This document shows positions 17,599 through 52,201 of a stretch of DNA of 64,000 nt, one piece after another. Origin of the DNA: Phellopilus nigrolimitatus (lineage: Eukaryota > Basidiomycota > Agaricomycetes > Hymenochaetales > Hymenochaetaceae). A program made the translations under genes and the position numbers. Below the pieces are notes generated by a model that worked only from the letters and a program-made list of their open reading frames with translations, made no database searches and had not been told where the DNA came from. The stretch's first letter is position 1. Each line of letters begins with the position of its first letter. The stretch covers positions 665,776 to 729,775 of the forward strand of contig JAJOHG010000014.1 of the NCBI GenBank assembly GCA_021029095.1, written 5' to 3'.

Positions 17599-17783
17599 CA
17601 CCTCGCGCTTGGGAGAGAAGTATGTGAAATAGGATACCATACTGCATACTTACTATTTGCATATAATTTCGCATATAATTCAGTATGACATATACACCAT
17701 GCTATTATGCTTAGGTCTGAATGCCTTGGACTTGATTAAAATACACATTGTTTAAGTACGCTTAGTCTGACGATAATATATCT

Positions 17784-19502: not shown

Positions 19503-19880
19503 GCTGGATCTGCTGGAGTGCGCAAAGGTGCGGTGTATCTGGAGTAGACGCGGTGCTGCTGTGGCTGACACGGCTGCGCGCGAGAGGCGAGAGAGGATGA
19601 GGGACGCCAGAGCGGATGGACAGGCTTGGAGAGTATAAGTACCAGAAACGGCGAGCGGTGACAGCGGGAAGCACGGGACTGCTGAGCCTATCTGATGTCT
19701 CTGTCAGACGCTGACGCGCGCAATTGGTCTTGCGCTTACTCACCTCGCCTGCTGTCGCGACCGCGGGCGAGATGACGCACACATCTCGTGATTCAACGCA
19801 TATCAACGATGGACCGTTTTCATTCAACAAGACCGGACATCAAATTCATACAATTCAAAAAGGAAAAACAAAAACTAGAA

Positions 19881-23677: not shown

Positions 23678-24359
23678 TAGATTCGGTGTAGATCCAATAC
23701 GACGGTGCCTTAGAATAAATAGACAGCAGACGATCAATAAAGAGGCTAGATTTTCGAAGTAAATAAATGAAAATAGATCCAGAAAGGGGTGATGGAGTGC
23801 GCCAGGCGTCTGACTTGCTCGTGACAAGAGAAGATGAGGAATACACGACAAGCCTGCTTCGGATCGGAATGCTACCTGTAGAACGCATGAGTCTCTCAGA
23901 CCATGGTGGCAGAAGTCATTATATGGATGAACATTGTTCAATTGCTACTCGCGTCAACGATGCACTTGATTCATTGCATTTTCAAATTATTCGGCCTTCA
24001 GACGAGCTTATAAAATCTCGCAATGGCACAAAAAAGATCAATCAAATTACAATCAATAGCAATAGATACATGTGGGAATCGAGCATAACGGAATACAAAG
24101 AGTTCTCGGTAGTACAAATCAAAAAAAAAATGATGATACGAATCGGTCCAGCCTGAGTCAAAGTCATAAACAAGTTGTGCAGTCACAATCACAGATCCGG
24201 AGAAAAAACAAATAGAAAAAGATAATACTCCTTGACGGTCCTTGATATCGCTCCCCATCGGCGCGTCGTCCACCATTACAATCATCCCTTTTCCAGTGGC
24301 CTCCCATTCATCCTGGCCTTGAGGTCCGCGACACACACCGCTGTCGCGGCGATCATTTC
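23678..24359. other. Intergenic between convergent orphan genes
   Basis: 3' ends of the two convergent orphan genes. At 24240-24359 it still contains the Arg/Asp repeat tail of the large orphan gene, now out of frame (see that gene). Nothing else is recognised. Confidence 0.5.
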
Positions 24360-27300: not shown

Positions 27301-28138
27301 TAGAGTAGACGCACGATAGTCACAAAATGTACTCCAATTGCAGAGAATTCGTTAATAATTTCTCTGACCCCTGAAGCGAGTGACTGCTCTTGCAGTGGCG
27401 GCGCGAACTCTGAGTCCGCGCCTGTGATTTCGACGGACGGCTCGACGTTGGCGGCCTTAAAGACCAGCTCGGCGTCGGCGTCCTCGGTGGCATTTCCCGC
27501 GTGTGCGACAATGTCCGCAGAGAGCGTTGGGGTCGACGGCGTGGAATCGGACGGCATGGTGTCGGACGGTGTAGCATCAGACAGCGTGGCGCCATGGGTT
27601 GCTCGACGTAAGCGGCATACGCCTTCTCAACGTCCGCAACCCCGGCGGGTATACCCATGCCAGCGTCCTCAGAGACCGTGATAGATGTGTAGTTACCGTG
27701 TGCGAAGTGTTCGTCGACTGATTCCGGAAGCTCGAGGAGCTCGATGACGGGCGGTGACGAGAAGCATGCGGGGGTGGCAAAGGCCTGTCCAATATTGTCG
27801 TACGGCGTGTATTCCGGGTGCCTAGGTGCGTAGTCCGATGCGAGAGTAGAAGACGGTGCAGGGGTGGATCCGAGGGAGGTGGCAAGGTCCTCGCCGCCGC
27901 ACTGGAACAGGGTGGAGAGGAAGTCCGCGTTGACTGACTGGGTGGCAAGGTCTAGCACGGCGTGGTTCTTGAACGACTGCGCACCGTACAAGGTCTGTGC
28001 AAACGAGTACGAGGTGTCGAAGTCATACTTGTCCACATAGCCGGACTGACGGACGTGGAGGGCGCGGTCGTCGTTGACGGGGGGAACGAGGGACAGGACG
28101 AGGGAGAGAGTCGGGGCGAATCCCCGGAGGAACACCAT
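24360..28138 (-). pseudogene. Large orphan membrane protein with duplicated module (copy B, frameshifted)
   Basis: Left-arm twin of the intact gene at 46016-49789, with the same eight phase-0 exons: complement 27315-28138, 27155-27256, 27036-27092, 26544-26978, 26401-26484, 26280-26342, 26060-26224 and 24360-26009. Exon 1 has lost 10 bp (ATCGGTAAGC) at about 27591, just after VEQPMA. This throws the rest of the exon (TDATLSDATPSD.., DAELVFKAANVEP, first membrane segment) out of frame, so I call it a probable pseudogene or allele. Exon 4 carries five extra residues (SNTTP-type repeat) relative to the twin. The basic motif RPANRRGGGGPARKRARE is intact. As in the twin, a 4-bp difference from copy A near 24610 leaves the Arg/Asp/Gly repeat tail out of frame. 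Confidence 0.7.
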
Positions 28139-28248
28139 GTTTCCCGGGTTGCTGTTGAGAGTGCTTCGAGTGGAGAGTGCCTCTGCTGCTGGGGGAGATG
28201 GGGGAACGAGGTCAAGAAACGAATGAGGGAGACGGGAGTGGCAGGCAG

Positions 28249-28259
28249 GTATTTATATG
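28249..28259 (-). promoter_or_regulatory. TATA box of copy B
   Basis: CATATAAATAC on the minus strand, about 110 bases before ATG 28138, identical to the element before copies A and C. Confidence 0.6.
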
Positions 28260-28689
28260 CAGCGAGAATTATGTCAGGAACGCGCTCTCGGAAGCGCAAC
28301 AAGACGCGTCGGTGGCGGGAATTTCCCTGTTTTGGACAGACTTCTTCCACTCGATGACATGTATGACGTCTCGCGTGACGCAGGCATTCGGTAACGATGG
28401 AACGGAATCAAATCCTCGGACTTTGCGAGACGGTACCACTTCGGTATTGCCATGTTGCATGAAGCACATTTGAATCGATAGCGGCATTTTGCATATGCAA
28501 GTGCGAAAGAAGATGAGTTAAAACGTTTCTCACAACAATTCAGCCGACAAAAATCCTACAGTTCTTTATCCTTTCGGACAATTTTCTTTTCCTTCAAAGT
28601 CCTTCTCCTGCGCCCCAAAGTCGAATTCTTGTAGTTGAAACCGTTCCATCTGAGGTTGGTCGAGAACAATTTGTTATAGAGTTGGAATT

Positions 28690-28840
28690 TTCACTTTGGA
28701 AAACTTGAACACACGACTTCACGTCGCCGACTGGCTGTGTGCAAACAGCGTTCGCCCGAGGAAGGTAGATAAATACGACTGCATTTTGCAGGTCCCGGGA
28801 GATTGCCTTGACGTTGTTGAGCCGAAGACCAAGCACGATG
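28690..28840 (-). pseudogene. Relic of a MIF-like gene (mirror of 44704)
   Basis: Two short blocks align with exons 1 and 2 of the intact tautomerase gene at 44704-45386. At 28807-28836 GGTCTTCGGCTC..AACGTCAAG matches the exon coding GLQLTTNVK. At 28692-28731 the sequence matches DDARSFALEFSK plus the following donor. The start codon is gone and the frame is interrupted. Position and orientation are exactly those expected from the inverted repeat, at far lower identity than the outer arms. Exons 3-6 are barely traceable toward 28590. Confidence 0.6.
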
Positions 28841-29069
28841 TACACGGTGAGAAGAGCGAATAAAGTACCACAGAGATGGGCGGCGTGAAGCGAGTTGCGA
28901 CTTGATTCGGCAACTGCCGTCGATCCTATCATTTTCGAGCTCTCTGAATCTAGACGCAGACTCTAGCGAATGATCTTTTAATTCTCGCTTCATTCGACCC
29001 TCTTTTAGAAACACAATGACAATATAGTACAGTTATCCACTCCTCTAAACACATGCATTAGCGGCCCTT

Positions 29070-29546
29070 CTACGCGCCGAACGACTTTTCCTTTGGGAGG
29101 GCCTCCTTGGTAGAACTTCCGAAACTGAAATTATACTGAATGAGCCTCGTCTGTAGAAGCACATGGATTGGATCTTCAGCTCACCCCCAATTCGCCCTCC
29201 CAGGATCAAAAAATGTGCTATAGCAAATCAACGAGGAGTAGAGAATAAGACGAAAGAGAATAACACACAGGTGTCCACGATCATCCTTGACCCCAAGTTT
29301 CTTTCCAAAGAAATCGAAAAAAGACTTGCTATACTTGATGTTCTCCTGTGGCTTGATGATATCCAGAGCTACCTGTATTTCGAACAAATCGTCAAATTTC
29401 GTTAAGAATTAAATCTAGAAGAGAGTATTACTCACCACAGACAACTGCAGCGCAGGCTCGAAAGTCCCCGCGAAAGTAAGGTATTCGTCATAAATGTAGC
29501 TGATTGAGATCATTTCCTCCGGCTTGTTGAGCTTCTCCGCTGCAAC
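29070..29546 (-). pseudogene. 5'-truncated MIF-like tautomerase gene (mirror of 43785)
   Basis: Exons 3-6 of a macrophage-migration-inhibitory-factor-like gene survive with good splice sites: complement 29436-29546, 29269-29372, 29185-29217 and 29070-29124. They read VAAEKLNKPEEMISISYIYDEYLTFAGTFEPA, split over shorter blocks, then IIKPQENIKYSKSFFDFFGKKLG, FFDPGRANWG and STKEALPKEKSFGA*. Exons 1 and 2, including the start Met and the catalytic Pro of MPSLQ, are missing. The bases at 29576-29760 instead match the promoter of the intact gene at 43785. A deletion of roughly 300 bases therefore joins the far promoter to intron 2 at about 29575. Not expected to give an active enzyme. Confidence 0.8.
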
Positions 29547-29740
29547 CTGCGAGGTATTATAAAATCATTGATTGCAACGGTCGTCATTTCGATGCTCGTT
29601 GGGGCTAGCTCATGCACCTTACAAATGAACCCACAGGTGCTCAAGACAGAGACAAATCCTAGAAAGAAAATATCGAGTCCCGACGCACCGGGAAATGACC
29701 ATCGGACTATAAGGCGCTCACTGACGTAATTTTGCCTTGC

Positions 29741-30200
29741 TTGGAGTCCCTACTTGTCGTCTCTCCCTTGGCCAAACGCCACGCCTTACTCACATGCAGA
29801 CGACTCGACGACGCCATTTGAAAAATAGATGACAGACGCCAAAGGAGCTCGCTCGTAATTTGATCACTAGGTGAAGTTAGTCGGGCGGCTCTCGTAGGCA
29901 AGATTTCGGTTGAATGTGCTAGGGACTTTGTTGGGTGCGGTCAGTCTCCCGCTCATGTTGTGACGCCAGGCTTTGATAAATTTAACTTGAGCAAACATCG
30001 CGATGTTTTCGACAGACCCTTCCTTTGGAATCCCGATATGTCTTTGATCTCGATCACGGGAGTTCATGTAAAAAGAGAAGAGCACGGGATGTGGAGGTCA
30101 AATCCCGTTCAGTTCCTGCAGTCTGTAAGGAGACACTTATCTTGGTACTGCCCACCTGCTACAGAGACTTCCTATGACTTCAAGCTGCGTGTCAGGTCGA
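29741..30200 (+). pseudogene. Relic of NAPE-PLD gene (mirror of 41927-43444)
   Basis: Degenerate copy of exons 1 and 2 of the phospholipase D gene on the right. The start region reads ACGCCACG where the intact gene has ATGCCACGACC. Matching blocks follow: CATGCAGACGA, GTAGGCAAGATTTCGGTTGA with GACTTTGTTGGG, and GTTGTGACGCCAGGCTTTGA against GTCGTGAAGCCAGATTTTGA. Around 30150 a block resembles the part coding RRLPAPCSIPELPEFNF. The metal-binding exon is absent. An open frame of about 104 codons from 29960 is a by-product of this relic. Identity is roughly 65-75% by eye. Confidence 0.6.
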
Positions 30201-30793
30201 TGGTCGCGTTTGCGACAAAGGATACATCTATTAGGAGATCACAACTTATCGTTGCGAAAAAGAAATATTCATAAACATAGGTCCGACAGCCAGCCTCACT
30301 AGAATAGCAGGCGGTAATACCCAATAGAAACCGCAGCTCTAAAATAGTGCTATGACCTTATTAAAGGAAAATGAGACATTGCTGTCCTGTTGAAAGCAAC
30401 CATGAGATAAGGAGTGCGCGTAAGTATATTACAGCATGGAAGTGACAGAATTAAGGAATTAGGATTGGAGAAGTGCATGTTCCTCAACACGCTGGCTAGA
30501 CTTGATTACAGACAAGTGAATGCCGGTAGTTTGGATAGACACGATATCAATAAATGTGAGGAAGCAGGCCTCAGCTGAGCAGAGTACTTCCAAGAGACCC
30601 AGAAAATGTTCAAACCTCGGCGACTCAGGTGTTGCCTTGAAAGAATTCCAGCCTAGAGTATACGTAAGTCAATCGTCCTCGGTCATGTTGCAACTGTGAA
30701 TCAAGGTGTCACGTGTAAATCCTTAGTATACCACGCGGTACTTGTTTACCGAGCGCTTGTCCACTACGCTCGTCCTTTGGGGCTGATGCGCTG
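30201..30793. other. Intergenic, no gene seen
   Basis: End of the recognisable mirror homology and promoter of DLT1. Nothing else is supported. Confidence 0.4.
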
Positions 30794-31833
30794 ATGCGCT
30801 TCCAGTGGAACGCGTCGACACTAGCCCGTTTCTCGTATTTCATTCTCGTGCTTATCCTCGGGCTCCTCCTCCTCGTCTCCTGCGTTTTCCTCCTCTCCCA
30901 GGCCGTTCGCACCGCACCGGACCGTAGCTGGTTCGGCAATGTGAACGCCCTCATCGTCGGGGCCGCGTACATCGTTGTCGTGCGTCTCTACGCCCACAAA
31001 TCAATCGTGCGAATCTCTCACATGTCTTGGTGCAGCTCGTTGTATCCCTGGCCTTTTGTTTAAAAAGGCGGTTGTCAGTGCGTCTCGGGCTAGCGAGGAT
31101 ACCTAAGGGGCGGATCGCGATCGGTAAAGGGGACTTGCCAAAGGTTTGTCCTGAGCTTGTTGCATGGATCAGTTTTTTATCCTTTCCTAAACTTTACGCT
31201 CGGCAGGCCGTTCACATCCTCATCGAAGAGGAGCTTCTCCGTTCGTGTGCAATCGCGTATACTGCTCAGCCGAGAATCGCCCGGCGTGACGGGTGGGGGA
31301 CACCAGGTTCATTCACTCCCATTTTTGTTATAAGAACATCGTATCGACTGCGCACGTTTGCTCTTACAGGAACAAAACACGAGAATGTGCGCTTTCGCAC
31401 AGCAATTCTCGACACCATCCCAAGCATCGGTGCGTACCTGTCTCTGGTTCGCTCTCTTTCACTTCAAACTGATCATCTTTACCGTAGACAAGGCCGCGCG
31501 CAAAGTAATCCCCTCAATGCCGTCGCTATCCCCCCACGTGCCACTCTCGCGGCACCTTCGGCACATCATGCCCCTCGTCTCCGCCGACGCGCTTGGCGAG
31601 ATGCACTTCCGCGCGTATACAGATGCCGTCGAGAAGGCGCGCTACGCTGAGCAAGAGCTGACCGAGGAGGAGTTCGGAGCGGCAGTTGATTCAGGTGCTG
31701 CTATCAGTGATATGTGCGCTCGTTTCATGCCTCATGCTTTCGAGACAATTTATTTATTTGCTAACATCTGCGTTCGCATTTTAGTCTGACAGCGTATCAG
31801 AGAGTGCTCAGTGAACGCAATAATTTTCAATGA
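30794..31833 (+). CDS. DLT1: DLT1-like membrane protein
   Basis: Fungal 'defect at low temperature protein 1' family, of unknown biochemical role. Exons 30794-30979, 31036-31143, 31207-31306, 31370-31429, 31488-31694 and 31793-31833 give 233 aa. Two N-terminal transmembrane helices are visible (FSYFILVLILGLLLLVSCVF and NALIVGAAYIVVLVVSLAF) with a short extracytosolic loop containing APDRSWFG. The cytosolic domain has LARIPKGRIAIGKGDLP, VHILIEEELLRSCAIAYTAQ, GWGTPG and VLP-like patches typical of the family. The last exon is less certain: an acceptor at 31792 gives AYQRVLSERNNFQ*, while reading through would end at 31789. It is the first intact gene inside the unique core. Confidence 0.78.
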
Positions 31834-32623
31834 TTGCAAAGGGCTAAGCGTCATAGTGTATCAGTAGTCAGTCCTTTCATTATGTTATCTTCTGCAATTT
31901 TCACGAGATCGAGCCAGGGAGTAATCTTTCGTGCATCGGTCACCACTAAGAAGCGTAATGACATATATTGCTGCATGATCTTCGTACCATGAAATACTAT
32001 GAGAGCATGTGCGAGATCTCATTCTTTACCCGTCGAACGCCATGATGTGTACATCATGATGATACTTGCATGCTATCACCAAAATGCACAATGCCCAGTA
32101 TGTTGATTTCTCGTTCTATTTGTTAAGCATGTTTGAAGTCGCAGAACGGGAAAGCAAACATCTACAAATTCCGCGAATCGCAACAAATTGTATCAGCGGT
32201 CATGGTTGCAAATTGCTTTTTCTTTCTCCTTTCGCGATTCCCCCAGCTGGTGAGGCTGGTTTGCTGTAATCAATCCATGTAAATATAGAACTTTGAGAAC
32301 ACGGAGGGGGGAATAGAAAAAGTAAGCCTTATACCCATTGAGTACCATTGCTGATTGTTGTTTCCTGGACGGCGACATACACTTTGCGAAGTCCCTTGGA
32401 GTTGGTTTAGCCAGTCTATCACTTGAAATACAACGGTCGCCACCGGAGGACGTTAACACCTGTGGGTTAGCGCGGAACCAAATCCGACAGCCATCCTCCA
32501 TGGCCTAGTGTAAGTCACAGGGTCTTTCTGTGGCGTGAACAGGATATAAAAATGCTGTTAGGCAGACCGATTACCAGTAACTTTTCTGCACACACCGACT
32601 TCACTCTACTTCGACAGGACATT
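31834..32623. other. Intergenic with TATA of next gene
   Basis: No gene is seen. TATAAAAA at 32545-32552 lies 72 bases before ATG 32624 and is the likely promoter element of the peroxygenase. Confidence 0.45.
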
Positions 32624-33546
32624 ATGCCCCTATCTACCAAACGTCACGAATACCAGCTCCCGCCTCCAAACAGCGACTGGCAACGTTCGCCATGCCCAGC
32701 GCTCAATGCGCTTGCTAATCATGGATACATGTGTGTTTTTTTGAAGCATACATTGCTTGTTGTAAAATCTTAATTTGCGACTTACAACGAATTTGCAGAA
32801 ACCGCAACGGGAAGAATATCAATGTGGTCAAGCTTGTCGACGAGATTCACAACGTCTACAACTTATCTAAGGCACTTGCATCTCTCCTCGCCGGCGGGGG
32901 TTTGTTACTCTGCGGTGGCGACCGCGAGAAGTTCGAGATTGACCTGCATAATCTCGCCCTGCACAACCGAATTGAGCATGACTATTCCCTGGTGCATGCG
33001 GACGTCAAACCAGGGGAGACCCATGCGCCGACAGTCGTCGATAATGACAAGCTCAAAAAGCTTCTCAACATAAACGACAAGGATTACTTGACGGAAAAGG
33101 ACTTAATCGAAGTGCGAAGGCGGCTCATTGCCGACAAAAAAGAGCTTGATCCTATCCACAGTGTCGTCGCATCAGGCGAGATATGCATGATCATGGACCT
33201 TCTTGGTAAAGATGTTAGGGTCAAGGACTCAAAGGGCAACCTTAAAATCGAGAGGCAAGTCCCAAAAGACTACATCAAGGTATGGATGGGAGACGAGAAA
33301 CTTCCCCCTGGCAAGAATTGGGAGAAGCCGTCGAAAGAAATCACGTTTCAGGAAATCCAGGATAATCAAAAGGAGTACAAGAATTTGGAGAACGATATTA
33401 GAAAGGAGAACCCAAGAAAAGCTCTCGCGACATTCCTGCAGTCGATGTACGGTATAGAATCAATTGATGCCTTGATAAATTCATTGGAAACGGGCGTGGG
33501 ACATCCTTTGGTTCAATTGCACGGTGCCCTCGCTAGATCCAAGTAG
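32624..33546 (+). CDS. Short heme-thiolate peroxidase/peroxygenase 1
   Basis: Chloroperoxidase / unspecific peroxygenase family (PF01328), which uses H2O2 for oxygen transfer or halogenation. Exons 32624-32730 and 32799-33546 give 284 aa. The heme-ligand Cys lies in SPCPALNALANHGYI (about residues 27-41), followed by NRNGKNI. The distal acid-base motif is EHD in HNRIEHDYSLVHAD (about residue 105), i.e. the CPO-like EHD type rather than EGD. The intron falls at the usual site within GYI. No signal peptide is visible (MPLSTKRHEYQLPPPNSDW), so the product is probably not conventionally secreted. Substrate cannot be deduced. A second family member follows 950 bases downstream in the same direction and is quite divergent, so the tandem is not recent. 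Confidence 0.9.
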
Positions 33547-34498
33547 ATACTATGCAATGTCATTTCCATGTATACGTATAGCTAGTCGAATCCTCACTTG
33601 CTTACATCGAAGGAACAATTCGGATGCCACAAGTGCTTGAGCAGTATACACGTAAGTTGCATTTCGTTTCAAATACCTGAAAACGACTTTGATCTCGCAA
33701 ATGACACAAGGATTTCTGTAAGCACAATACGTTGTTAATGTCACAAATATTTTCGCTTCAACCTTAGCTGCTTAACCTTGTCGTATTATGTCTTTGGATA
33801 TCATGTTTCTAACAAAACTTCCTCCGTCCTTTTACGTAAACGTCCTAAAGCGGGCTTTGAGGATTATTTTCGCACGCCATGTGAATTTCACTAACGCCAC
33901 CTCACTGCATCGCCTCTTGCGAGGATCTTTTTGTCTAGTCACTGTGGCTATCTGAGACAACCTTCAAGCCCTGAAGGACCTTCGCTATTCATAAAGCTGA
34001 TGATCCAAATGATGTTTGGCTGTACTGCTGCGCAGCAAACTAGAACTCAGTTGATAACTCTGCCCGTTTACTAAGGTGATGGCTGCCATTGGCTATTCTC
34101 ATTATGGTGTCAGTAAGCATACTTTTTAGTCCAGACAACACGCTACAACACGCTGGAGTCTGCAAGCTATAATTTCCAATTCCACGAGTGCTTTCGCATG
34201 TGAGACGCGAGGGAGCAATATTGTTCTCGACATCGCCACACCTGGCCTCCGCCACGCCGCACCGCAGGCCCCACTCGGAACGCCTGCAGGCAGGCAGACG
34301 ATAACAAAAAGGCGCTATTTCTCTTTTAACGCCAACGTCACACCTGGTGATCCAACATTGGAAAGAACCGCTGACTTTGAGCGCGTCACTGGTATATAAG
34401 TACCAGAAGTTAAGGGGGGTGTTGACTACCACTCTACTATTACCATCCGCTACACTATTACCTCCGAGACGCTCTCGACGACCTTGCTACTTAAGAAT
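33547..34498. other. Intergenic with TATA of next gene
   Basis: No gene is seen. TATATAAG at 34393-34400 is about 100 bases before ATG 34499. Confidence 0.45.
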
Positions 34499-35304
34499 AT
34501 GTCGCACTTCCAACCTTTTGCGCCATCTGTACCAGGCGATAGTCGTTCTCCGTGCCCGGCTCTTAACGCGCTCGCGAACCATTCATATATGCAAGTTATT
34601 TATTTTACTATTGCGCGGCGGCAAGCCTTTTCTGACTGGTTACCCACAACAGTCCGCACTCTGGCCGCTCGATCCCCTTTTTCCAGCTTGTGCATGCGCT
34701 GCGCATAGTATACAACTGCTCCACACCGCTTGCATGGTTGCTCTCCGTCGTAGGCTTCCTGTGGTGTGGACACCTTTCAGGTTCGGGCCTCTCCACACGT
34801 CTTGCGCTCGACTTGCACGATCTCGCGCGTCACAATCGCATCGAGCATGACGGATCGCTCGTCCATGCAGACGCCGCGCCTGGCAAGAATTACGCGCCTG
34901 TCGTTCCAGACCCTGTTCGCCTCACCGAGGTCCTCGACGCGGGTAGTGCTGATCGGTTTGCCGTACGCGACGCGAAGCCAAGCAAAGGAGCGTTGACGTT
35001 CCTCGACTTTGCGCGTGTGCGTTTCTTGCGCGACCGCGCCCTCGTACGGCCACTCGATAGGGTGCATGCCGAAATCACCCGCGGGGAGGTCGCGCTTATT
35101 CTCCTAGCGATGAGCGAGGGTGACGAAAGCGCAAACGCTGGTGAACATGTCATTCCTCGCGCACGACTCTCTCAGTGGTTCGGCGAGGAGAGATTACCAG
35201 ACGGATGGGCGGTCCCGCGCACGCAAATCGGGTTGTTGCGGACGGCGAGTCTCGGACGGAAAGTAGGGAGCGAATGCGCGCGGCTCGCGCGATACAGTAG
35301 CTAA
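34499..35304 (+). CDS. Short heme-thiolate peroxidase/peroxygenase 2
   Basis: Second member of the chloroperoxidase/peroxygenase family. Exons 34499-34590 and 34653-35304 give 247 aa. The heme Cys lies in SPCPALNALANHSYI and the continuation PHSGRSIPFFQLVHALR matches the family. The distal motif is EHD in RHNRIEHDGSLVHAD. The single intron has a GC donor (GCAAGT) instead of GT; using it restores the conserved residues across the junction. A hydrophobic stretch (STPLAWLLSVVGFLW) follows the first helix. No signal peptide is visible. The Gly before Tyr in the PCP helix is Ser here (NHSYI), unlike gene 1. Identity with the upstream copy is modest. Confidence 0.88.
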
Positions 35305-36260
35305 ACCATATCCGAGACTCAAAATTATTCCGACTTCCACCATTGACGACCTATGCAAAAGGAATACACACCTAACTTCAGGTTCCCGTCTCACTCCTAG
35401 TTTCTTAAACTACGCATCCCGCATCTAGCGTCATCGGTTACTGGGATTGTTCTCTTACCCTCCGTGTTCTTGGATCCAATAACAGACTGGACTATGCTTC
35501 TCATAATCACGGACGCAGACAATGGAACTCATTTTCTGTCATTTTCTGTCATTTCGCTCATTATCTTGACTCTTTACATACGGTAACTTACATCATATGC
35601 GTGCTGCTTCTGATTCTCCTATTTTCGTTCTCCTGACATCAAGTTTTCGATCTTAGCGGAACGTGTACGCAATTTGAGTAGTCTGGCTTCCTTGCTGATG
35701 CATCACCGTCCTGAGTGCTTAACTTCTCATTTTGTCTTTTCATACGGTTCTAAAATGTCGCTAATGGATGCGCTGCTGAAATAAGATCAGAACTATAATG
35801 AAACTTTGTGTTCGCATAGCATGCCTGTCCAGCAATACTCATGTCACTTGCTAAAGCTTGACGTCGGTTTATGCAAGAATATTTGCAAGGTCACTTGAGA
35901 ACCATTCACTTCCCCCCTTTTCTCGTCTTTGGATTTTGTATATGAAAGCACATTGAACTGCATGCATTATGAATTTGATGACTGCGGCTTCGTGAGTCTC
36001 GTAAAAACGCTCAGATACTAGCTCTGAAGATGCAATCAACTCAAGTGCAAAAATGAGCGGGAGTCTAGCTTTCCCGTAATTACGATGAGTTACATCTAAC
36101 TCTGTGGCTGGTTGGCTACTTATAGTCGTCGGAGATTGAATGTGATGTCCAAAAGGAGAGCCGTTGCACTGCTCGCCTCTACCCACTTCCTACATTTCTT
36201 CATTCTATTTTGGCCCTCAAATCTCAAAGATCCGGAAGCCGGTTATCATATAGTGCAACC
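35305..36260. other. Intergenic, no gene seen
   Basis: No domain or splice-supported frame. A short tandem repeat of CATTTTCTGT lies near 35530-35553. The last part is the promoter of the gene at 36261. Confidence 0.4.
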
Positions 36261-37886
36261 ATGGAATTCAGCTCGAAGAACAAGCAATCTTTCCAAGGTT
36301 TCTTGTCGGCGCTCACCGGCTTCTTTTCGTTCACCAACTTGAAGGCGCCCCACGCCGAACTATCCCTTACAGACTTGAAACCTGTGTCGATTTTGTACCC
36401 GCAGCAGTCACTCGATTCTTTACTCAGGGCATTAGCTAGGGCTCCGGCTGTTGATTTGGTCTCAAATGTGAAGATAGTGAGTCTGTTGCCACTTGTATGC
36501 CACCGTGATTTGGCTAATTTCGCTTGCAGGGTCTGCAGCGAATCAGGCTGGCTTTCGTTGTTGGGGCGTTATTGGCTATTGAATTGGGTCTAACGCTACT
36601 GGTTAGATACCTGTACGCTTTCTACATAGAGAAGGTGATTTAGTCATGCGATGTTGATCGAATATACGCCTCATCTTCGTTGAAACAGGTCGGCCGACTG
36701 TTTTCGAAGATAAAGTCCAGTCGGAACGAACTGATACTGATAACAATCTTCTCGGCCTTTGTGCGTTCCTCTATCTAACCTAATGATTTCTTCTCACAAG
36801 TCTGTTTTTTAAAAGTGCGCGATCGCATCGCTGCGGCTTGTTGCTCAGTGGTGTAACCTGTCTGAAGCCGGAGGCCTCATCAAGTTGGTCAAAATCAAGA
36901 CGAACTTGAGGGTCTATGATGCCTGGAACGCAGGCAACGACAGCTCTGGTGACAGGATTTTCTTCAATAATAACATGAAAGACGGAACAGTAAACCTTTC
37001 TTCTTCTGTTGCTTCTTCCGGGCTCGAGGACTCTAGAAACTTGAAGACCGCACCTGAGATAGACTGCACGGAGAGCTCAGATTCGAAATTGAAGGAAGAA
37101 CAGAACGACAAGGTTTCAGTGTCCACCTCGGTATCGCCGGCGAAGAAAAAATGGGAGAAAGTCGCCTTCAGGGTCAACGCAGAATCTTTGGACGCGGGTT
37201 CCTGTCTGGACTCGGCCGACACGAACTCGGTACCCTCAATGGCGAGCTTGTCTATTTCCGATTGCGGCCCCGTGTCCGTCTCGTCGCAGATGTACACCAT
37301 GCTGCTGTCGCCACCACTAAGAATGGAGGAGGATGTCATTGGAACCTCGGCTAGGCTACAACATGATGACACCCTGGATTCATCGAGTTCGGCCGCAACC
37401 GCTGCATCAATATCCCTGGCCATAGCCTCACTTCCTGCCGCTTCCCCCGCTTCTGCTGACTCAAAGCCTGAGGCTACTGAACACAAAGCGAAAGGAAAGG
37501 AGGTTGAACTCGAAGACGCCAAGGATTACTTATCTCTCTGCACTCCTGAAGATTTGGGAGCCGCCACGGACGCAGTGCTTTTGAACACAAGCTCACTGAC
37601 TACTAGTCCCGTTACCGGATCGATGTCGGCACCCGTTGTTGCGGTTGCATCATCTTCTGTGGCTTATCCGTCACCTGAGGGCCCGGAATCTGAAGGCGAG
37701 AAGAAGCCATATCACACCCGCCCAGCAAACAGGCGAGGCGGTGGAGGTCCCGCGCGGAAGCGCGCCAGAGAGGCATTGGCGTCGGCATTGGCAATGGTTT
37801 CCGCTACTGGTGACTCGACACTCGCTACTTCTGCTTCTTATCCTGAGGTCCAGTCGTCTCAATCTTCGCCTGTCACTATGCATTAG
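36261..37886 (+). CDS. Orphan membrane protein with Arg-rich motif (copy D)
   Basis: Divergent fourth member of the large orphan family, 487 aa. Four exons, all phase 0: 36261-36476, 36530-36634, 36689-36760 and 36816-37886. The architecture copies the others: a soluble first exon (MEFSSKNKQSFQG..), then three hydrophobic exons (LAFVVGALLAIELGLTLLV; ELILITIFSAF; CAIASLRLVAQWC), then a long Ser/acidic region. It ends with the shared motif RPANRRGGGGPARKRARE about 45 residues from the stop. There is no Arg/Asp repeat tail. Sequence identity outside the motif is low, so the relationship rests on the motif plus the identical exon/phase plan. No ~190-aa partner lies next to it. It sits between a peroxygenase and FIG4 in the unique core. 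Confidence 0.65.
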
Positions 37887-38435
37887 ATATCAAGAAGAAG
37901 GCTATGCTGTTGGCGGGCGCCGTAGCTCAGGGAATGAAGCAAGGACTCGCAAGTTAAGACGGGCGCTCTAGACCAGGCATGATGTTCAAATCAAACTACA
38001 CACACATGCACACCCACTAATGGCTAACAACGACTATTCTCAATCTCGTTTCTTCCACTTTCCCCCTATACTTTAGACCACAACCACAACAACTATGCAC
38101 ACGTCTTCGTCTTTTTTTCCACGGGAAATCGCGTATATGTAGTAATCATTGTTTTGTTCATATCCCAGTATGATACTATGATTTTTATTGAATTCCAAGC
38201 GTTTGACCCTCAGAACTCCTCTACTACTTGATGACAGCCGCATAAGGGAGCGCTCGCCGCTCGGGTATCGAGGACGTATTTGTTTACGCGTCGTAAGCAT
38301 GTGACAACATCTTTACGCTTCCCGATTACATTGCAGTCTGCACTGTGCAGTCGTCCGAGGTGCTTGAATGACTGATTGACTGTCGAGCACTCGGAGGCAT
38401 TCAATACTTATTAGCAGATCCTCGCCTTTGCCGTC
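37887..38435. other. Intergenic, no gene seen
   Basis: 3' region of copy D and promoter of FIG4. Nothing else is recognised. Confidence 0.4.
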
Positions 38436-41400
38436 ATGGACTCTGGAGAACACAAAGAACAGCCTGTCCTGCACATCCCAGAAGACCCGCAACATTTGAG
38501 TAGCTCGAGTGTTAGTCCAACAGTGACATCGGTCTCGATTCCGCCTTCGCCAAGGAAGGAGCCCACTCCGTCTGTCAACTCAAAAACTTCTCGAAAACCT
38601 AGCGCAGCTGCGACACCAACGGGTGGGCCGCGTCCCTCGCTCTCCTATGTTCCGCCGCCACAGAGCCTAAAAGGTCCGCTTGCACTCAACAAGTTCATAC
38701 TCTACGAGAACCGCACACGCTTCTATGTCGTCGCCTCAAATACGTCTGATTCACGCCATCGCATCATGAAGATCGACCGTACAGCGCAGGAAGAGCTTGT
38801 CGTGCACGATGATGACACGATATATAGTGGGAAGCAGATGAGCGGTATGCTTAAGATGCTGGAGGACGGGAACAAGGGCAGCGGTGGTCTAGGAAAAGCG
38901 AGGGTGATTTTTGGTATCGCAGGTACGACATCTCACATTGGGACGTTAAGCTGTGAATCATTGTTTCCTCGACAGGTTTTATTCGGTTTACGGCTGGTTG
39001 GTACATGATTGTCATCTCTAAGCGCTCGGTCGTCGCCTTGCTTGGCGGCCACTACCTCTATCACTGTGAAAATACCGATATGATACCTGTTTGTTTCAGT
39101 CAAAAGGTCGAGAAGCCTGCAGAAGAGCAGCGTCTTATGAACATTTTCAAACAGGTTGACATATCCAAAAACTTTTACTTCAGGTGCATTTGAGCCTTCA
39201 CTCGCCCTGCTATTGTATTAACGTTTTCATATTAACGTTTTCAAGTTACACGTACGACTTGACGTCGACTCTTCAGCATAATCTAACGAAGCCAGTACCC
39301 GTTGAATCGTCAGATAAATGGATGTTCAACAATCGCTTTGCATGGAATTACCACATGCTCACGGCGCCATTTGCGCATCGCGAGGAAGGGCCCATCAAGG
39401 CACACTGGATTCTGCCGCTCGTTCATGGACACGTAGACCAAGCTAGTGAGCCGTAAAAAGTATCGGAGAGCAGCTTGAGGCTTATGTTATTCTAAGAGCT
39501 CACGGTCTTGGGCCGCGTGGTGTTCATTACACTCATCGCACGCCGTTCGCGCCACTATGCGGGTGCTCGGTACCTCAAGCGCGGAGTCAACGACGAGGGC
39601 AACGTCGCGAATGAAGTGGAGACCGAGCAGATCGTTTCTGAGCTGTTGACGACTCCGTTCTATTATCCAGCGCCGCGTGAGTCCACCGCCAGCGAAGGTA
39701 ACCCGTATCGACGTGCCCCAAGTCCAAATTATACCAGCTACGTCCAAGTAAGCATATTAGTCCCGATCGACACTCCAATATTCACAGGCAGTCACGAAAG
39801 TATCGTGGCAGTATTCCTATATACTGGACCCAAGAGACAAACGCAATGACACCGAAGCCGCCCATCGACAGTGAGTTCTTCCCAATCAGACATTAATATT
39901 TACTTACGCCATGTAGTCAGCGTTGTTGACCCCTTCTTCACACCCGCGTCTCTGCACTTCAACGACCTTTTCAAGCGATACGGCACGCCAATGGTCATTC
40001 TCAACCTCATCAAACGGCGTGAGCCCGTACCGCGCGAGAGCAAGCTTCTGGATGAGTATACTCAATGTGTTGAGTATCTTAATCAGTTTTTACCTGAGGG
40101 GAAGAAGATTGTTTATCGAGCATGGGACATGTCACGGGCCTATAAAGAGTAGGCGATACATAAGGTTCACGGAGCGTCGATGCGTATTGACAAACACACA
40201 GGAAAACGCAAGATGTTATCAGCTATCTCGAAGACCTCGCTGAAGAGGCCATCCACCTAACAGGAATCTTCCACTCTGGACCAGAGCCTGCGTCACATCT
40301 GATGCGTAACAATCCGATGGAACCGTACCGTCCGACGATCGCATTGCAAAATGGCATCTGCCGCACGAACTGTGTCGACTGTCTTGACCGCACGAATGCG
40401 GCGCAGTTTGTCTTCGGGAAGCGCGTGCTCGGGCATCAGCTATACGCGCTCGGCGTAGTTGACAGCCCGAACCTGTCGTTCGATTCAGACGCGGTGAACA
40501 TGCTGACAGAGATGTATCACGACCATGGGGATACCATCGCGCTGCAATATACGGGTAGCGCGCTCGTCAACCGCGTCGAAACGTACCGCCGCATGCCGCA
40601 TTGGAATAGCCACTCGCGCGACATTATCGAGAACATACGCCGCTTTTATACGAACGCTGTGCTTGACGCAGATAAACAGGCTGCCATTAACCTTTTTCTC
40701 GGCGTGGTGGAAAAGACGGTTTCTCATCCTCCGCAACGCGGAGGGTATCGTGCTTGGTTCGATCCTGCTCACCTTGAACCTGCGTATCGATTGGAAGATT
40801 GCGAACGGGGCCTGAGCGAGTTCGCAGAGCACCGTGCGGATTTCTGGATCGAATATTATAGGCCGCTGTTGTTCACGAGCCTAGGAAAGCACTTCGCGTA
40901 TTCTATGAACAGTACGCTGAAACTCCCAGGGTGAGCAAGTGTGAATAAACGAAAATACAGCGACGTCTAACTTGTCAACTTAGGAAGACAGCGAAAGATA
41001 TTGATCATAGTCCATTTGATCCGAATCATGCAGTGATGCAGCCTGGGTGCGAATCGAATAGGCTACTTCAGATTTCTCATACTGACAATCTACCAGTCTC
41101 ATGCAAGGCGTCCGCCGCTGGATGGGTGCGCAGCCCCCGTCAAGCCTACATAAGTCGTTCAGGAAAGTAACGAGCAAGGCTGAGGCCAAGCATGCGAAAC
41201 ACGAAACGGAGCCGGGTGAGAAGAACTCTACGGAGCACATAGCAAAGAGGCTCATGGATCCTGAAGTTCCGGATGACGAACTGGAGCAATACGAAGGGTG
41301 CGTTTCCGTCTCAACTGTCTCGCTGACCTTTCTTAAAGATTAAAATAATCCTTAGATATATTAACCAGTACCAAACGCTGCTTGAAGAAGAGGACAAGTA

Positions 41401-41677
41401 TCCGTCCAGGCAGGAGCGTGAAGTGTACGCGCTTGCGGTGCTGACAGCGGAGGGAGACCGCCCGGACTGGGAGATTGAGAGCCCGTCGGACGAGGCGTTC
41501 GTGCGACATGTACAGCTTTCCCAGCCAAGCTTCCTGGACAGTTTTCTGCGAGAGGGCACGGAGGCCGGCCGGAGAGAGCTCAGTGTGGGCGTGCCGACAT
41601 CATTGTTCAACTACGAGAAGTGGGTTCGCGGGAGTGCGCAAAGGAGGGTGACGGGAGATTTCAGTTTCGTTGGGTAG
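38436..41677 (+). CDS. FIG4: FIG4-type polyphosphoinositide phosphatase
   Basis: SAC-domain phosphatase of the Fab1/PIKfyve-Vac14-Fig4 complex, which turns over PI(3,5)P2 on vacuolar/endosomal membranes. Ten exons (38436-38922, 38976-39183, 39246-39445, 39497-39747, 39792-39870, 39917-40148, 40202-40930, 40984-41046, 41097-41297, 41356-41677) sum to 924 codons and 923 aa, the normal family length. After a Ser/Pro-rich N-terminus come [64 protein letters not shown] and IPIYWTQE. The catalytic CX5R loop is [12 protein letters not shown] (about residue 543). The C-terminal part ([18 protein letters not shown]) also matches FIG4 rather than SAC1. There is no C-terminal transmembrane pair, again as in FIG4. 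Confidence 0.93.
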
Positions 41678-41926
41678 CTGTTGCGACAATTCGGGGACCT
41701 GTCTGTTTGTATTATATCTTTTCATGTACGTACTGTATTCTCAATGGAATGTGCATTATTGCGAACTCGTGATGCGGTTTACTTACGAGCCTCCTCATAT
41801 TCCACTGAGATCCCTAATAAGCCAGACGGGTCAATTCATTAAAAGTAAATGTCATATCGTTGGTTCATACACAGGAAATGATTAACCTTACGCCCATGTT
41901 ATTCATAGCAAACTCAATATAGTCAC

Positions 41927-43444
41927 CTATTCGTCCCCCGAAGGTCGAATCTCGACAGTCCTCCCCACATCCACAACGCCGATCCCCCCTATTTCCATCC
42001 AGTCCCTCAGGCCCGCAACCTCGCGCGCTTGCATGAGCTCAATGATCGGCTCGAGCGCCTCAACATCCGTGCCAGCGAATGTCGCGAAGTGCATCCCGAG
42101 TGAGTGCCGTGCACGCACGGCGCGGTGGATGGCGACGGCGTCTGCCGGGGAGGCGTGCATCGCGGAGAGGAGTGGATGGTGCGTGAGCTGTATATACGGA
42201 GTAGAATAACATTAATACTAATGAAAATTGTAAGATAAATGCACTTGCACGAAGGCCTAGCTGCGAGACGAATGACAAGGTTCCGCCCCTCCAGATGGGA
42301 AGCATCGCGAGGTCGAACGGCCCGCAGCGCTCGCCTATTTCTAAGAGATGCGGTATTCAGCACAAGTCGATGACAAGAAGTATGGACATACCTCCGAATG
42401 CCGGACATGCACCGTTCGTTCCCATATATCCAGTGTCCCTGGTATACGTGATCAAATGCGAGTTCTAAATGACTCCAAAGGACTAACCCGGCATGATATA
42501 TTCTCGCACCCAGCTGTGTGGCTGTCGTAGTTAGCTGCTTGACTGCCCATCCGCACCACAGCGTAGTGCATTTGTCCATCACGCTTCGACCTTTTACCCT
42601 GGCATAAAGAAGCCCGTTTTAAAATAAGTCAGAGGAGGCTCACCACTTGTATGCTGCGCAGGAACGCAGACGAAGTTCAGTATCAGCTCAGGGGAGCTAG
42701 ACCCAATAGCTGGAAGAGAAATCTCGTCCCACCAGTCTAGCTCGTGCACCTGATCTGTAGGTATACCACAGGCGAGAATGTAGGATTTGACTCCAAGCGG
42801 GACGAGAAACACTACGTCGGTACCTCTTATCCGGAAGATTTCCTGTATGCTTGGGAGATCCAGGTGGTCATAGCTTAATAATAAAATAAAAAGAGTCAAC
42901 CCTAGTACTTATAGCAGCCTTATAAGATACGTACTGGTTATGGCTAATTAGCACGAAGTTGAACTCCGGAAGCTCCGGAATCGAGCAGGGGGCAGGCAGC
43001 CTTCGACGAATACCTGTCCAAGCAGAAGGACCCGCCCTTTCGGAGAAAATAGGGTCGAATAAAACACGGATAGGCGGTTCACTGTCCTCTTGTACTGGAA
43101 ACTCGACTAAGAAACTCTTTCTCGCCGTCAGGATTCTTGCAAATTGATAGATGACTGAAAAGGCTCACCGCATGCCCTAACCAGGTCGCTTTCACAGCAT
43201 CCTTGCTTGTGTCGGATGCATCAAAATCTGGCTTCACGACGTTAATCAGAGACTGGTTGTGCCCAGCAAGGTCTTTAGCCCATTCGATCGGGATGTTGCC
43301 TAAGAGGGCCGGTAGACCCCAAAGCCAGTTCGTGCTCGACGAGCTCGACCTTGTGTTCAAGTCGCCGGCGGGCTCCTCTGGCGTTTGCCATGGATTTTGG
43401 AACAGCGTTGCCGAATCGTCTGCATGGTGAGCAGGTCGTGGCAT
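41927..43444 (-). CDS. NAPE-hydrolysing phospholipase D (metallo-beta-lactamase fold)
   Basis: Zinc hydrolase of the NAPE-PLD family (yeast counterpart FMP30), releasing N-acylethanolamines from N-acyl-phosphatidylethanolamine. Exons: complement 43169-43444, 42935-43116, 42644-42873, 42488-42590, 42392-42438, 42249-42334 and 41927-42187, giving 394 aa, the family length. Motifs: KATWLGHA, LFDPIFSERAGPS, the metal site SHNHYDHLD across an exon junction, LVPLGVKSY, WWDE, CVPAQHTSGRS, the Asp ligand in YHAGDTGYMG, and LAMLPIW. Near the end is MHASPADAVAIHRAV. The last intron uses a GC donor (GCAAGT, 42248). An in-frame ATG at 43495 would add 17 residues, but 43444 (MPRPAHHADDS) looks more natural. 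It is divergent from the MIF-like gene at 43785. A decayed mirror copy lies at 29741. Confidence 0.9.
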
Positions 43445-43784
43445 TTGGTCAAGGGAGACGACGAGTAGAGGACTCCATGGTAGAAAGCAAGGCAAAATGA
43501 CGTCAGTGAGCGCCTTAACGGGCGCCTAAGTCCGAGCCAATTCCCGGTGCGTCGGGATTCGGTATTTTCTTTCCTGGCTTTGTCTCTGCCTTGAGCACCC
43601 TTGCATTTGTTTGTAATGTGCATAAAATAGCCCCAACGACCATCGAAATGACGACAGTTGACGCGCATGTTGACGCGCATGTTGACGAGCAACACCGGAC
43701 TCGATTGCAATCGCAGTGTATAAGATGAGAGAGCCGCTCTCATCATCGTTATACTGTGCATTCGTTTACCGCCAACCCCACAAC
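43445..43784. promoter_or_regulatory. Divergent promoter, NAPE-PLD / MIF-like gene
   Basis: 340 bases between two divergent starts. TATAAG at 43719-43724 serves the rightward gene. A conserved block (about 43500-43650) is also found at 29576-29760 in the decayed mirror copy. Confidence 0.5.
43657..43690 (+). repeat. Short tandem repeat GTTGACGCGCAT
   Basis: Two perfect 12-base copies (43657-43668, 43669-43680) and a third partial copy (GTTGACGAGC) about 30 bases upstream of the TATA box. Possibly a transcription-factor array; this is inference. Confidence 0.6.
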
Positions 43785-44437
43785 ATGCCAAGTCTTCAGC
43801 TCACCACCAACGTCAAGGTATGACTCCCCGGCGCCCGCCAAGACAAGCGACTAATAGCCATTAGGTCGACGACGCCAAGTCTTTCGTACTTGAGTTCTCT
43901 AAAGTAGGTCTTGAGATTGGCACTCTCAGCGATCGCACTCAATGATATTATAATACCTCGCAGGTCGCAGCAATGACGCTCAACAAGCCGGAGGAGATGA
44001 TCACAATCAGTTACATTTATAATGAATTTCTCTCATTCGCGGGGACCTTTGAGCCTGCGCTGCAGCTGTCTGTGGTGAAATACTCTTTTACACTGAACAC
44101 TATCGATAATTGGCAATTAATTCGATGTATAGGTAGCGGTGGATATCATAAAACCGCAGGCGAACATTGGGTACAGCAAATCTTTCTTCGACTTCTTTGG
44201 GAAGAGACTTGGGGTCCGGGATGATCGTGGACACATGTGTGTTATTTTCTTTCGTCTTATTTCCAACCCCTCGTTGATTTACTACAGCACGTTCTTTGAT
44301 CCTGGGAGGGCGAACTATGGGTGATCTAAGAATCTGATTTATGTGTTTCGACCAGGGAAGCTAATCTTGGATCTGTTTTTAGTTACAAAAGTTCTACCAG
44401 GGAGGCCCTCCCAAAGGAAAAGTCGTTCGGCGCGTAG
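43785..44437 (+). CDS. MIF-like tautomerase 1
   Basis: Macrophage migration inhibitory factor / tautomerase superfamily homologue. Exons 43785-43817, 43865-43903, 43964-44074, 44133-44236, 44288-44320 and 44383-44437 give 124 aa. The N-terminal Pro needed as catalytic base is present (MPSLQLTTNVK), as is the Lys equivalent to MIF Lys32 (LNKPEEMI). Family landmarks are SFAGTFEPA, IKPQANIGYSKSFFDFFGKRLG, DDRGHI and FFDPGRANYGYKSS. The tail LPKEKSFGA extends slightly past usual MIF length. Physiological substrate in fungi is unknown. A close paralogue follows 267 bases downstream. The mirror copy at 29070 has lost exons 1-2. TATAAG lies 61 bases upstream. Confidence 0.87.
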
Positions 44438-44703
44438 AAGGTCCATAACGGTGCCGGAAGCAGATAGCTGTAAAATATTGTTATATTGTTAGTTGTACGT
44501 TTCTGTAAAACAGTATCGAATTGAAATGAGCGTTAGAAGTTGAATTGCTTCTCGAGCGCCTAGGTAATACGAAAGGATCGACGTCCGACACGTCCGATGG
44601 CAGCTGCCGAGTCTCACCGTGCACGACACTTCACTATATAAGACTCGAGAGCTCTCACCTATCATCCGAACCCACATTACTCTTCCCCTACTGCACCCGC
44701 ATT

Positions 44704-45386
44704 ATGCCCGGTCTCCAGCTTACAACCAACGTTAAGGCAAGCCCCTTCAACTGCACGCGTGATCATAGAGCTTCATTGCGCGAACACTGTTCGCACCCAG
44801 ATTGACGACGCGAGGTCGTTCGCACTTGAATTCTCCAAAGTAAAGATTCAAACTATCATGTTGTCATCGAGCGATCTCAACGATACGATCGTATGTAGGT
44901 CGCCGCAGAGGCGCTCGGGAAGTCCGAGGCGCTCATCTCGGTCAACTACAACTACGATGAGTTCCTCACTTTTGGGGGTACCTTTGAACCTGCGTTCCTC
45001 TTGAATGTGGTGAGTCATGTGTGATTATCGGCTCTGGCGTTTTCTGGATGTTTTCGATTCTTTTCCATACAATTTAGGTATCGTTGGGAAACATCAACCC
45101 GCAGGCGAACATCAAGTACAGCAAGGCGCTCTTCGGCTTCTTCGGAGAGAAATTGGGAATAAAAGACGATCGTGGATACATGTGCGTTATCTTCCCTTGC
45201 AAGCTTTGGGTCACATCTTATTGATCGACCCTTGTTCAACTTTTAGCTCGTTCATCGATCCTGGATGGGAGAATCTCGGGTGAGCCGAAATACCGTTTTT
45301 GCGCAAGCAGCAGCTTTGTATCGTCTAACTTCGCACTCCCCTTTAGCTACAAGAGCACAACTGCCGGAATTGCCTTCAAAAAGTAA
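44704..45386 (+). CDS. MIF-like tautomerase 2
   Basis: Second MIF/tautomerase homologue. Exons 44704-44736, 44801-44839, 44899-45009, 45078-45181, 45247-45279 and 45347-45386 give 119 aa, with the same six-exon plan and exon sizes as gene 1. Catalytic Pro in MPGLQLTTNVK; Lys in LGKSEALI; then TFGGTFEPAFLLNV, NINPQANIKYSKALFGFFGEKLG, DDRGYI, FIDPGWENLGYKSTT and end AGIAFKK*. Intron 1 has a GC donor (GCAAGC at 44737). TATATAAG at 44635-44642 is about 65 bases before the start. A relic of this gene sits at 28690-28840 in the mirrored position. Confidence 0.87.
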
Positions 45387-45894
45387 GGAATAGAACTGGA
45401 ATGAATGGAAAGCTGTAGGATATATGCAGGTTGGGTTGCTGTGAAATGTCTAATCGAAAGAGCTTGAGCGATCGTGCATCGGTCCCGTGTGAATTAAAGA
45501 AGGGGCTCATGTTCCAGTAAGCAGTGGCAAGCAGCGAACGAGCAGGCAGATGTTCAAGTAAGCTCGAGATCAACGACGTCTATCGCTGAATTTTTGGTCG
45601 TAGATGAACGAAGTGGTTAGTGATTTTGACGTGCTCTTTACATTTGCGATATGCTCTAACTCTCTTATTCCACTAGCGATTCAAATGTGCTTCATGCAAC
45701 ATGGCAATACCGAAGTGGTACCGTCTCGCAAAGTCCGAAGATTTGATTCCGTTCCATCGTTATCGAATGCCTGCGTCACGGGAGACGTCATGCATGTCAT
45801 CGAGTGGAAGAAGTCTGTCCAAAACAGGGAAATTCCCGCCACCGACGCGTCTTGTTGCGCTTCCGAGAGCGCGTTCCTGACATAATTCTCGCTG
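45387..45894. other. Intergenic; inner end of right arm
   Basis: High identity with the left arm begins at about 45670 and increases rightwards. Left of that only weak similarity to 28490-28600 is visible. No gene is seen. Confidence 0.5.
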
Positions 45895-52031: not shown

Positions 52032-52201
52032 AGGGGAGCTCAAAGTTGAGCTCATCTTTCCTGAGACTGAGATGCCTGCCTTTTACAGCGATTCAGAGAT
52101 GACCCGGCATGTCGGCTTTGAAGCTCGCTACCGAGCTTGGTCAGCTCGCAAACACGACCGCCGGCAACCTACATTCAGGTGTGCTAGGGTTACGCTTGCC
52201 T
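52032..52201 (+). repeat. Left terminal inverted repeat
   Basis: Matches the reverse complement of 52666-52835. The first ~110 bases are near-perfect, and the inner part is diverged but still carries TTCAGGTG(T/C)GCTAGGGTTA. Confidence 0.85.

What the first reader, a model, noticed from the sequence alone, without database searches (positions are those of the whole stretch)
28480..45670. Abrupt identity step: near-identical outer arms, decayed inner arms
Inward of the ~98% arms the mirrored order continues (MIF-like 2, MIF-like 1, NAPE-PLD), but the left copies are relics at about 65-90% identity. Such different ages in one inverted duplication suggest that the duplication is old and the outer arms are kept alike by arm-to-arm gene conversion, as in sex-chromosome palindromes. 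It also argues against a pure haplotype-join artefact, because the inner relics are ancient.
Basis: partly seen in the sequence, partly recalled or inferred. Interest (0 to 1): 0.9.

Follow-up and report, generated by a model that had tools for sequence, protein, structure and literature searches.

The report
Mirrored alleles misread as palindrome arms
A fungal contig end that looks like a large palindrome is most likely the two nuclei's versions of one chromosome region joined head to head at a real 4.6-kb inverted repeat, and only that short repeat shows good signs of copy-to-copy exchange.

Summary
The step is real as sequence. Left and right arms are ~99% alike up to w28473-28487 | w45667. 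Inward, only ~1.4 kb of left relic matches (70-80%): one MIF-like gene and a NAPE-PLD-like fragment. No left "MIF-like 2" was found.

The palindrome reading mostly fails. The window is the last 64 kb of a Phellopilus nigrolimitatus contig, C46; the right arm runs into the contig end. Arm DNA w11000-22000, with glutathione reductase, occurs in full only twice in an assembly that also holds allele-like pairs of other loci. Contig C445 enters the same centre through different flanking DNA, Z. Conserved genes near the ends of C46 and C445 share a contig in 9 of 45 other species. Simplest order: C445-Z-U-centre-U(inverted)-arm-C46, so the two arms are alleles.

What stays real: a 4.6-kb inverted repeat (U) around a 17-kb centre. 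U copies at the two loci are as alike as alleles (one pair: 1 difference in 4,093 bp), inside an older inverted duplication. This resembles the Saccharomyces flip/flop repeat. Whether the two nuclei carry opposite orientations is open; raw reads would decide.

The parts
10945..23886 (.). Left arm outside U; best read as one allele of a single-copy region
   Evidence: Full-length match elsewhere in the assembly only at the right arm; 0-12% divergence by 500-bp window
17907..19469 (-). Glutathione reductase gene, left allele (approximate coding span)
   Evidence: Pyr_redox_2 and Pyr_redox_dim; best solved-structure matches are glutathione reductases; 404 codons compared with the right copy: 10 synonymous, 0 non-synonymous changes
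23887..28487 (.). Unit U, left copy: ORF A (24363-26204, -) and the B segment (26821-28382)
   Evidence: Also in C445 (twice), C575, C401, C68, C46:512-527k and C618; 14 near-full-length B copies among 37 matches
28374..28478 (.). Edge of U: right-arm-type sequence to 28473, C445/C575/C401-type sequence from 28478; switch point of the left copy
   Evidence: Site patterns, alignment
28488..37586 (.). Left part of the centre, also present at the end of C445 (42 mismatches in 9,084)
28651..29994 (.). Inner relic: one MIF-like gene and part of a NAPE-PLD-like gene, 70-80% to the right side
32719..35301 (+). Two Peroxidase_2 (heme-thiolate peroxidase family) genes in the centre
   Evidence: PF01328
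38972..40146 (+). Sac-domain (phosphoinositide phosphatase type) gene; w37500-43300 is single in the assembly apart from 87 bp at the C445 end
   Evidence: PF02383
42639..43660 (-). NAPE-PLD-like metallo-beta-lactamase-fold gene (Pfam match weak, below the curated cut-off); outer part matches the left relic
43868..45194 (+). Two MIF-like genes, 65% alike as direct repeats (43868-44249 and 44804-45194)
   Evidence: PF01187
45667..50263 (.). Unit U, right copy (inverted); its junction with the MIF side also occurs in C46:512-527k, C618 and C68
50264..64000 (.). Right arm outside U; best read as the other allele; ends at the contig end
55654..57156 (+). ORF holding the glutathione reductase gene, right allele

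Best explanation
The 17.5-kb mirror-image arms are two alleles of one chromosome region, from the two nuclei of a dikaryotic mushroom, placed head to head in one contig. The turn was possible because a real 4.6-kb inverted repeat (U) flanks a 17-kb centre. SHOWN: copy numbers, contig ends, the C445-Z-U-centre junction, the sequence switch at w28473-28478, arm-U-MIF order in a paralogous locus, and linkage of C46-end and C445-end genes in some other species. INFERRED: that the strain is dikaryotic, that the true order is C445-Z-U(+)-centre-U(-)-arm-C46, and that the right arm continues into w10945 and down to w1. The step near w28480 is then the edge of U, where allele-level similarity ends and an older inverted duplication (MIF/NAPE-PLD, 70-80%) begins. 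U itself is kept alike between its two loci by exchange (gene conversion; inferred from tracts). Not settled: whether the head-to-head join is purely computational (about 0.5), or the assembler's answer to two nuclei that carry the centre in opposite orientations (about 0.3).
For: Right arm runs to the contig end. Full-length copies of w11000-16500 and w17000-22000 only at the two arms. Pyr_redox_dim gives 4 matches in the assembly: an equal-scoring pair on C38/C601 and the two arm genes; Homeobox_KN gives pairs on C1 and C50 and near-equal singles on C24 and C59, as expected if both nuclei are assembled. C445 reaches the left edge of the centre through Z, not through the arm. C46:512-527k keeps the order arm end-U-MIF side, as on the right, not as on the left. 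The left copy switches type within 5 bp at the edge of U homology. Genes 88 kb from the C46 end and 61 kb from the C445 end share a contig in 9 of 45 species, about 0.7-1.2 expected for one GH3 copy per species.
Against: Arm divergence (281 mismatches in about 11 kb) exceeds that of two other allele-like pairs (29 in 13,674; 42 in 9,084), although C625/C185 (110 in 4,917, partly end effects) and C445/C575 (up to 14% by window) reach it. C575 matches C445 rather than C46 at three sites in w28488-29119, so there are three left-junction versions for two nuclei; I explain this by the end of C575 lying on the C445 path, which is not shown. Contig ends are not perfectly identical to the path they would merge into. 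In 36 of 45 species the two marker genes are on different contigs, many of them short. No raw reads were available.
Confidence: 0.8

Rival explanations
1. Flip/flop inversion: one nucleus has C46-armL-U-centre(28488 to 45666)-U-Z-C445, the other has the centre reversed. The left junction is then real, made by crossing over between the U repeats, and only the right side of C46 is a haplotype join. The arms are still alleles, so this is a variant of the best explanation.
For: U is a 4.6-kb inverted repeat with near-identical copies. The right U has 17 sites shared only with C445 in w24280-25795, then none in w26740-28373, where it follows left/C575 (8 of 5,000 shuffles as uneven): a possible switch of nucleus. 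In Saccharomyces a REF/INV strain had a published assembly with a gap and partial duplication at the same kind of repeat (PMC9731477, passage).
Against: The reciprocal junction Z-U-w45667 was not found at allele-level identity (the outer flank of the C68 copy was not read). The left switch lies at the last bases of homology rather than inside the 4.1-kb near-identical stretch. C445 and C575 both have the standard junction.
Confidence: 0.3
2. Real palindrome as first proposed: one nucleus carries both 17.5-kb arms around the centre, kept alike by arm-to-arm gene conversion, while the inner parts decayed.
For: As assembled, the order is continuous; identity is mosaic, with about 1.5 kb free of substitutions (w11501-13000); both glutathione reductase copies look intact.
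Against: Only two full copies of the arm although both nuclei appear assembled; C445 links the same centre edge to other DNA; the C46 and C445 ends appear to be ancestral neighbours; the right arm has no outer flank.
Confidence: 0.08
3. A larger real segmental duplication: two copies of the centre on one chromosome, C46-arm-U-centre-U-arm-...-centre-U-Z-C445.
For: Three versions of the left junction (C46, C445, C575) are more than two nuclei need; U-family duplication is common here.
Against: w37500-43300 with the Sac-domain gene is found once, and no other contig found shows an arm-to-centre link at the left edge.
Confidence: 0.07

Closest known systems
Heterotype false duplication in genome assemblies (PMC9516828, passages seen)
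   Same: Two alleles of a heterozygous region assembled as if they were paralogues in one sequence.
   Different: Here they lie head to head around a real inverted repeat and its 17-kb centre, which mimics a palindrome; read depth, a key criterion there, could not be checked.
Saccharomyces chromosome XIV flip/flop region (PMC9731477, abstract and passages seen)
   Same: About 4-kb inverted repeats with two genes, tens of kb apart (24 kb there, 17 kb here), kept alike by exchange; a heterozygote there gave a misassembly with partial duplication.
   Different: Both orientations are not demonstrated here; U belongs to a dispersed family; nothing links its genes to sporulation.
Sex-chromosome palindromes with arm-to-arm gene conversion (recalled, no paper read)
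   Same: Mirror-image near-identical sequence around a unique spacer, mosaic identity.
   Different: No evidence that both arms lie on one chromosome; the KN-type homeobox genes found are on other contigs.

Membership tests
Palindrome with arm-to-arm gene conversion | Both arms on one DNA molecule | not testable with these tools
   No raw reads; only the C46 assembly itself shows it
Palindrome with arm-to-arm gene conversion | Arm copy number per nucleus of two | tested here: not met
   Two full copies in an assembly that appears to hold both nuclei; a collapsed allele cannot be fully excluded
Palindrome with arm-to-arm gene conversion | Arms cluster by genome, not by arm, across species | not testable with these tools
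   No other fungal genomes held as searchable DNA
Heterotype false duplication | Two allele copies, no further allele elsewhere | tested here: met
Heterotype false duplication | Half read depth on each copy | not testable with these tools
   No reads
Heterotype false duplication | Gap or discordance between the copies | tested here: inconclusive
   No N in the window; sequence switch at w28473-28478
Homogenised inverted repeat of flip/flop type | Long near-identical inverted repeat flanking a unique segment | tested here: met
   U 98-99% around the 17-kb centre; attested on the left by C445 and C575, on the right only by C46 itself and by paralogous loci
Homogenised inverted repeat of flip/flop type | Repeat copies homogenised by exchange | tested here: met
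   Copies at the two loci as alike as alleles; mosaic tracts; consensus errors from shared reads not excluded
Homogenised inverted repeat of flip/flop type | Centre occurs in both orientations | tested here: inconclusive
   Arm-U-w28488 is seen in C46; the reciprocal Z-U-w45667 was not found

The most novel reading that the evidence does not exclude
A flip/flop locus in a dikaryotic mushroom: a 4.6-kb inverted repeat carrying fast-evolving, lineage-specific sequence is homogenised by gene conversion and turns over a 17-kb segment (two peroxidases, a Sac-domain phosphatase, MIF-like and NAPE-PLD-like genes), so that the two nuclei sharing one cell carry it in opposite orientations: an independent counterpart of the Saccharomyces chromosome XIV flip/flop.
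Probability: 0.3. Interest if true: 0.65.

Novelty: new member of a known kind. Interest (0 to 1): 0.36.

Why it matters
Palindromes are often inferred from single assemblies. Here a mirror structure with an identity step, which looks like a clear case of arm-to-arm conversion, is better explained by two alleles turned round at a short real inverted repeat. If the inversion reading holds, it adds a second fungal flip/flop, tied to a fast-evolving gene and directly testable by PCR on single-spore isolates.

Tried and rejected
Mating-type locus: Homeobox_KN matches (6, on C1, C50, C24, C59) are not on C46 or C445; pheromone receptors were not searched. Telomere: no TTAGGGTTAGGG (+ strand as given) in the window, the fetched 63 kb of the C445 end, or C575; its reverse complement was searched only as the single unit CCCTAA. 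Hairpin-read artefact (recalled failure mode): rejected because the arms differ by 0-12% and lie 17 kb apart. U as a known transposon: no Pfam match for ORF A or an ORF of B or the three minus frames of B, no solved-structure match; plus frames of B and target sites were not examined. Arm genes: a six-frame scan of w10801-24002 gave only the oxidoreductase. The ORFs I first tried for that gene were in the wrong frame (and two of six proteins in the NCBIfam, which found nothing). Two long genome queries did not report even the self-match and were repeated with shorter ones.

Sister-species arms: no fungal genomes held as DNA; replaced by contig-length linkage. Rows were paired by eye from the best 120 of 210 and the best 120 of 1,455 hits; Boletus edulis was dropped because the two rows may be different strains. 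The chance estimate assumes one GH3 copy per species; with five copies and 35-, 45- or 60-Mb genomes P is 0.14, 0.04 and 0.008. Among 17 contigs of 0.2-1 Mb, 4 are shared against 0.19 expected for one copy. This strain's own GH3 protein is not in the list. Only one contig pair (Cerrena) has locus tags suggesting close neighbourhood.

The genome paper (Sonstebo 2022) is not held; I did not see it. Paper searches.
Full report
Where it is. The window is positions 665776-729775 of contig C46, whose length is 729775, so its right edge is the contig end. ORF A in the left U matches an NCBI protein of Phellopilus nigrolimitatus on a contig of exactly that length, a fungus of the Hymenochaetales. A published table lists 56.7 Mb for it (PMC10410303, one passage seen), against 56.4 Mb in 635 contigs here.

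The step. Left w10945-28487 and right w64000-45667 are inverted copies. By 500-bp windows identity runs from 100% (w11501-13000) through 94-97% (w19001-21500) to 88% (w22001-22500), then 97-100% in w22501-28500. Over w10945-22000 the rows add to 281 mismatches, about 2.5%. The right arm carries 859 extra bases in three pieces within about w52020-53003. At the inner edge the left copy is right-arm type up to w28473 and C445/C575/C401 type from w28478. Inward, homology at 70-80% covers w28651-29994 against w44879-43203, with a MIF profile matching the left relic and the right gene nearest the arm. Only one MIF-like relic is found on the left.

Unit U. The innermost 4.6 kb of each arm (w23887-28487) is a dispersed module, also found twice in C445 and in C575, C401, C68, C46:512-527k and C618 (C401 and C68 were fetched only in part). 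ORF A hits four proteins, all from this species (only the 7,999 candidates sharing most words were scored). Between the left copy and C46:512-527k it shows 38 synonymous and 119 non-synonymous changes. The B segment has 14 near-full-length copies, three of them in the window, among 37 matches.

Other contigs. C445 (1,393,024 bp) is colinear with w23887-37586 and then ends. Left of w23887 it carries other DNA, Z; apart from U-family copies and one 238-bp match (80%) it has no match to the window's left side, and none to 40 kb of C46 flank. C575 (11,005 bp) has Z, U and w28487-29119, then ends. It looks like an alternative version of C445's Z-U: both its ends are near-identical to C445 while the middle differs by up to 14%. 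Full-length copies of w11000-16500 and w17000-22000 are only the two arms. w1-6500 and w37500-43300 are single apart from short partial matches.

Two haplotypes. C46:512801-526800 and C618 differ by 29 mismatches in 13,674; C625 and C185 by 110 in 4,917, 0-10.7% by window, the highest at the ends of the alignment; the C46 centre and C445 by 42 in 9,084. Homeobox_KN gives 6 matches, including pairs on C1 and C50 and near-equal singles on C24 and C59. Pyr_redox_dim gives 4: an equal-scoring pair on C38 and C601, and the two arm genes. The arm gene is glutathione reductase; 404 compared codons differ by 10 synonymous changes only. The counts fit two alleles per gene; that the strain is dikaryotic is my inference.

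Linkage. A centrosomin-type gene lies at C46:641.7k, 88 kb from the contig end; a GH3 gene lies at C445:1331.7k, 61 kb from its end. Among the best 120 hits listed for each, 45 species show both. In 9 of 45 both are on a contig of identical length: Fomitiporia mediterranea, Plicaturopsis crispa, Heliocybe sulcata (242 kb), Hydnomerulius pinastri, Phanerochaete carnosa, P. sordida, Cerrena zonata (290 kb; locus tags 11 apart), Somion occarium and Psilocybe cubensis. In 36 of 45 they are on different contigs. Chance expectation is about 0.7-1.2 for one GH3 copy per species. So the ends of C46 and C445 are probably neighbours.

Synthesis. One linear order uses every junction attested outside C46: C445-Z-U(+)-centre(w28488-45666)-U(-)-arm-C46 reversed. 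The C46 contig then reads flank, arm of one nucleus, U, centre, U, arm of the other nucleus, and stops where it would re-enter its own flank. That last continuation is inferred. The argument that ancient inner relics exclude a haplotype join does not hold: the relics are the inner part of the genuine inverted module that makes the join possible.

What is real. In w24280-28373 the six pairs among left, right, C445 and C575 differ by 1 (left-C575), 32, 33, 36, 39 and 40 of about 4,090, so copies at different loci are as alike as alleles, inside a module whose next part is at 70-80%. A second U copy in C445 (1351002-1355615) differs from the left by 240 sites overall but by 3 in w25732-26893; in w25700-26739 C401, C68 and C46:512-527k differ from the left by 51, 58 and 104: a clear conversion tract. 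The right U has no substitutions against the left over w27290-28361 (one 10-base gap), while 17 sites in w24280-25795 are shared only with C445. Exchange between U copies is therefore well supported, though shared reads could fake the left-C575 identity.

Flip/flop. The same plan is known in Saccharomyces (PMC9731477, abstract and passages): two 4.2-kb inverted repeats 24 kb apart are homogenised and the segment between them inverts; one strain scored as REF/INV had a published assembly with a gap and partial duplication there. The same may hold here. The missing reciprocal junction and the switch at the very edge of homology keep it below even odds.

Noticed in passing
C445:1350204-1383839 (L019-L022): C445 carries its own inverted repeat: a second U copy and parts of Z face their partners at 74-91% identity around a spacer of about 9 kb.
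   Followed up: partly
C445:1351002-1355615 (L019): U copy with a conversion-like tract: 3 differences from the left U in w25732-26893 against 240 overall.
   Followed up: yes
52028-52839: Right-arm insertion absent from the left arm, bounded by 165-bp inverted repeats (93%); possibly a MITE-like element, target site not checked.
   Followed up: no
C19:952-3140: Partial second copy (91%) of the centrosomin-type gene of C46:641-643k, near the start of contig C19.
   Followed up: no
6497-10158: A third, older A-B unit inside the window: A part about 66%, B part 96% to the arm copies.
   Followed up: partly
361-909: WD40-repeat ORF at the left edge of the window.
   Followed up: no
36813-37883: ORF with a weak match to PF03498 below the curated cut-off (16.8 against 22 bits); probably not meaningful.
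   Followed up: no
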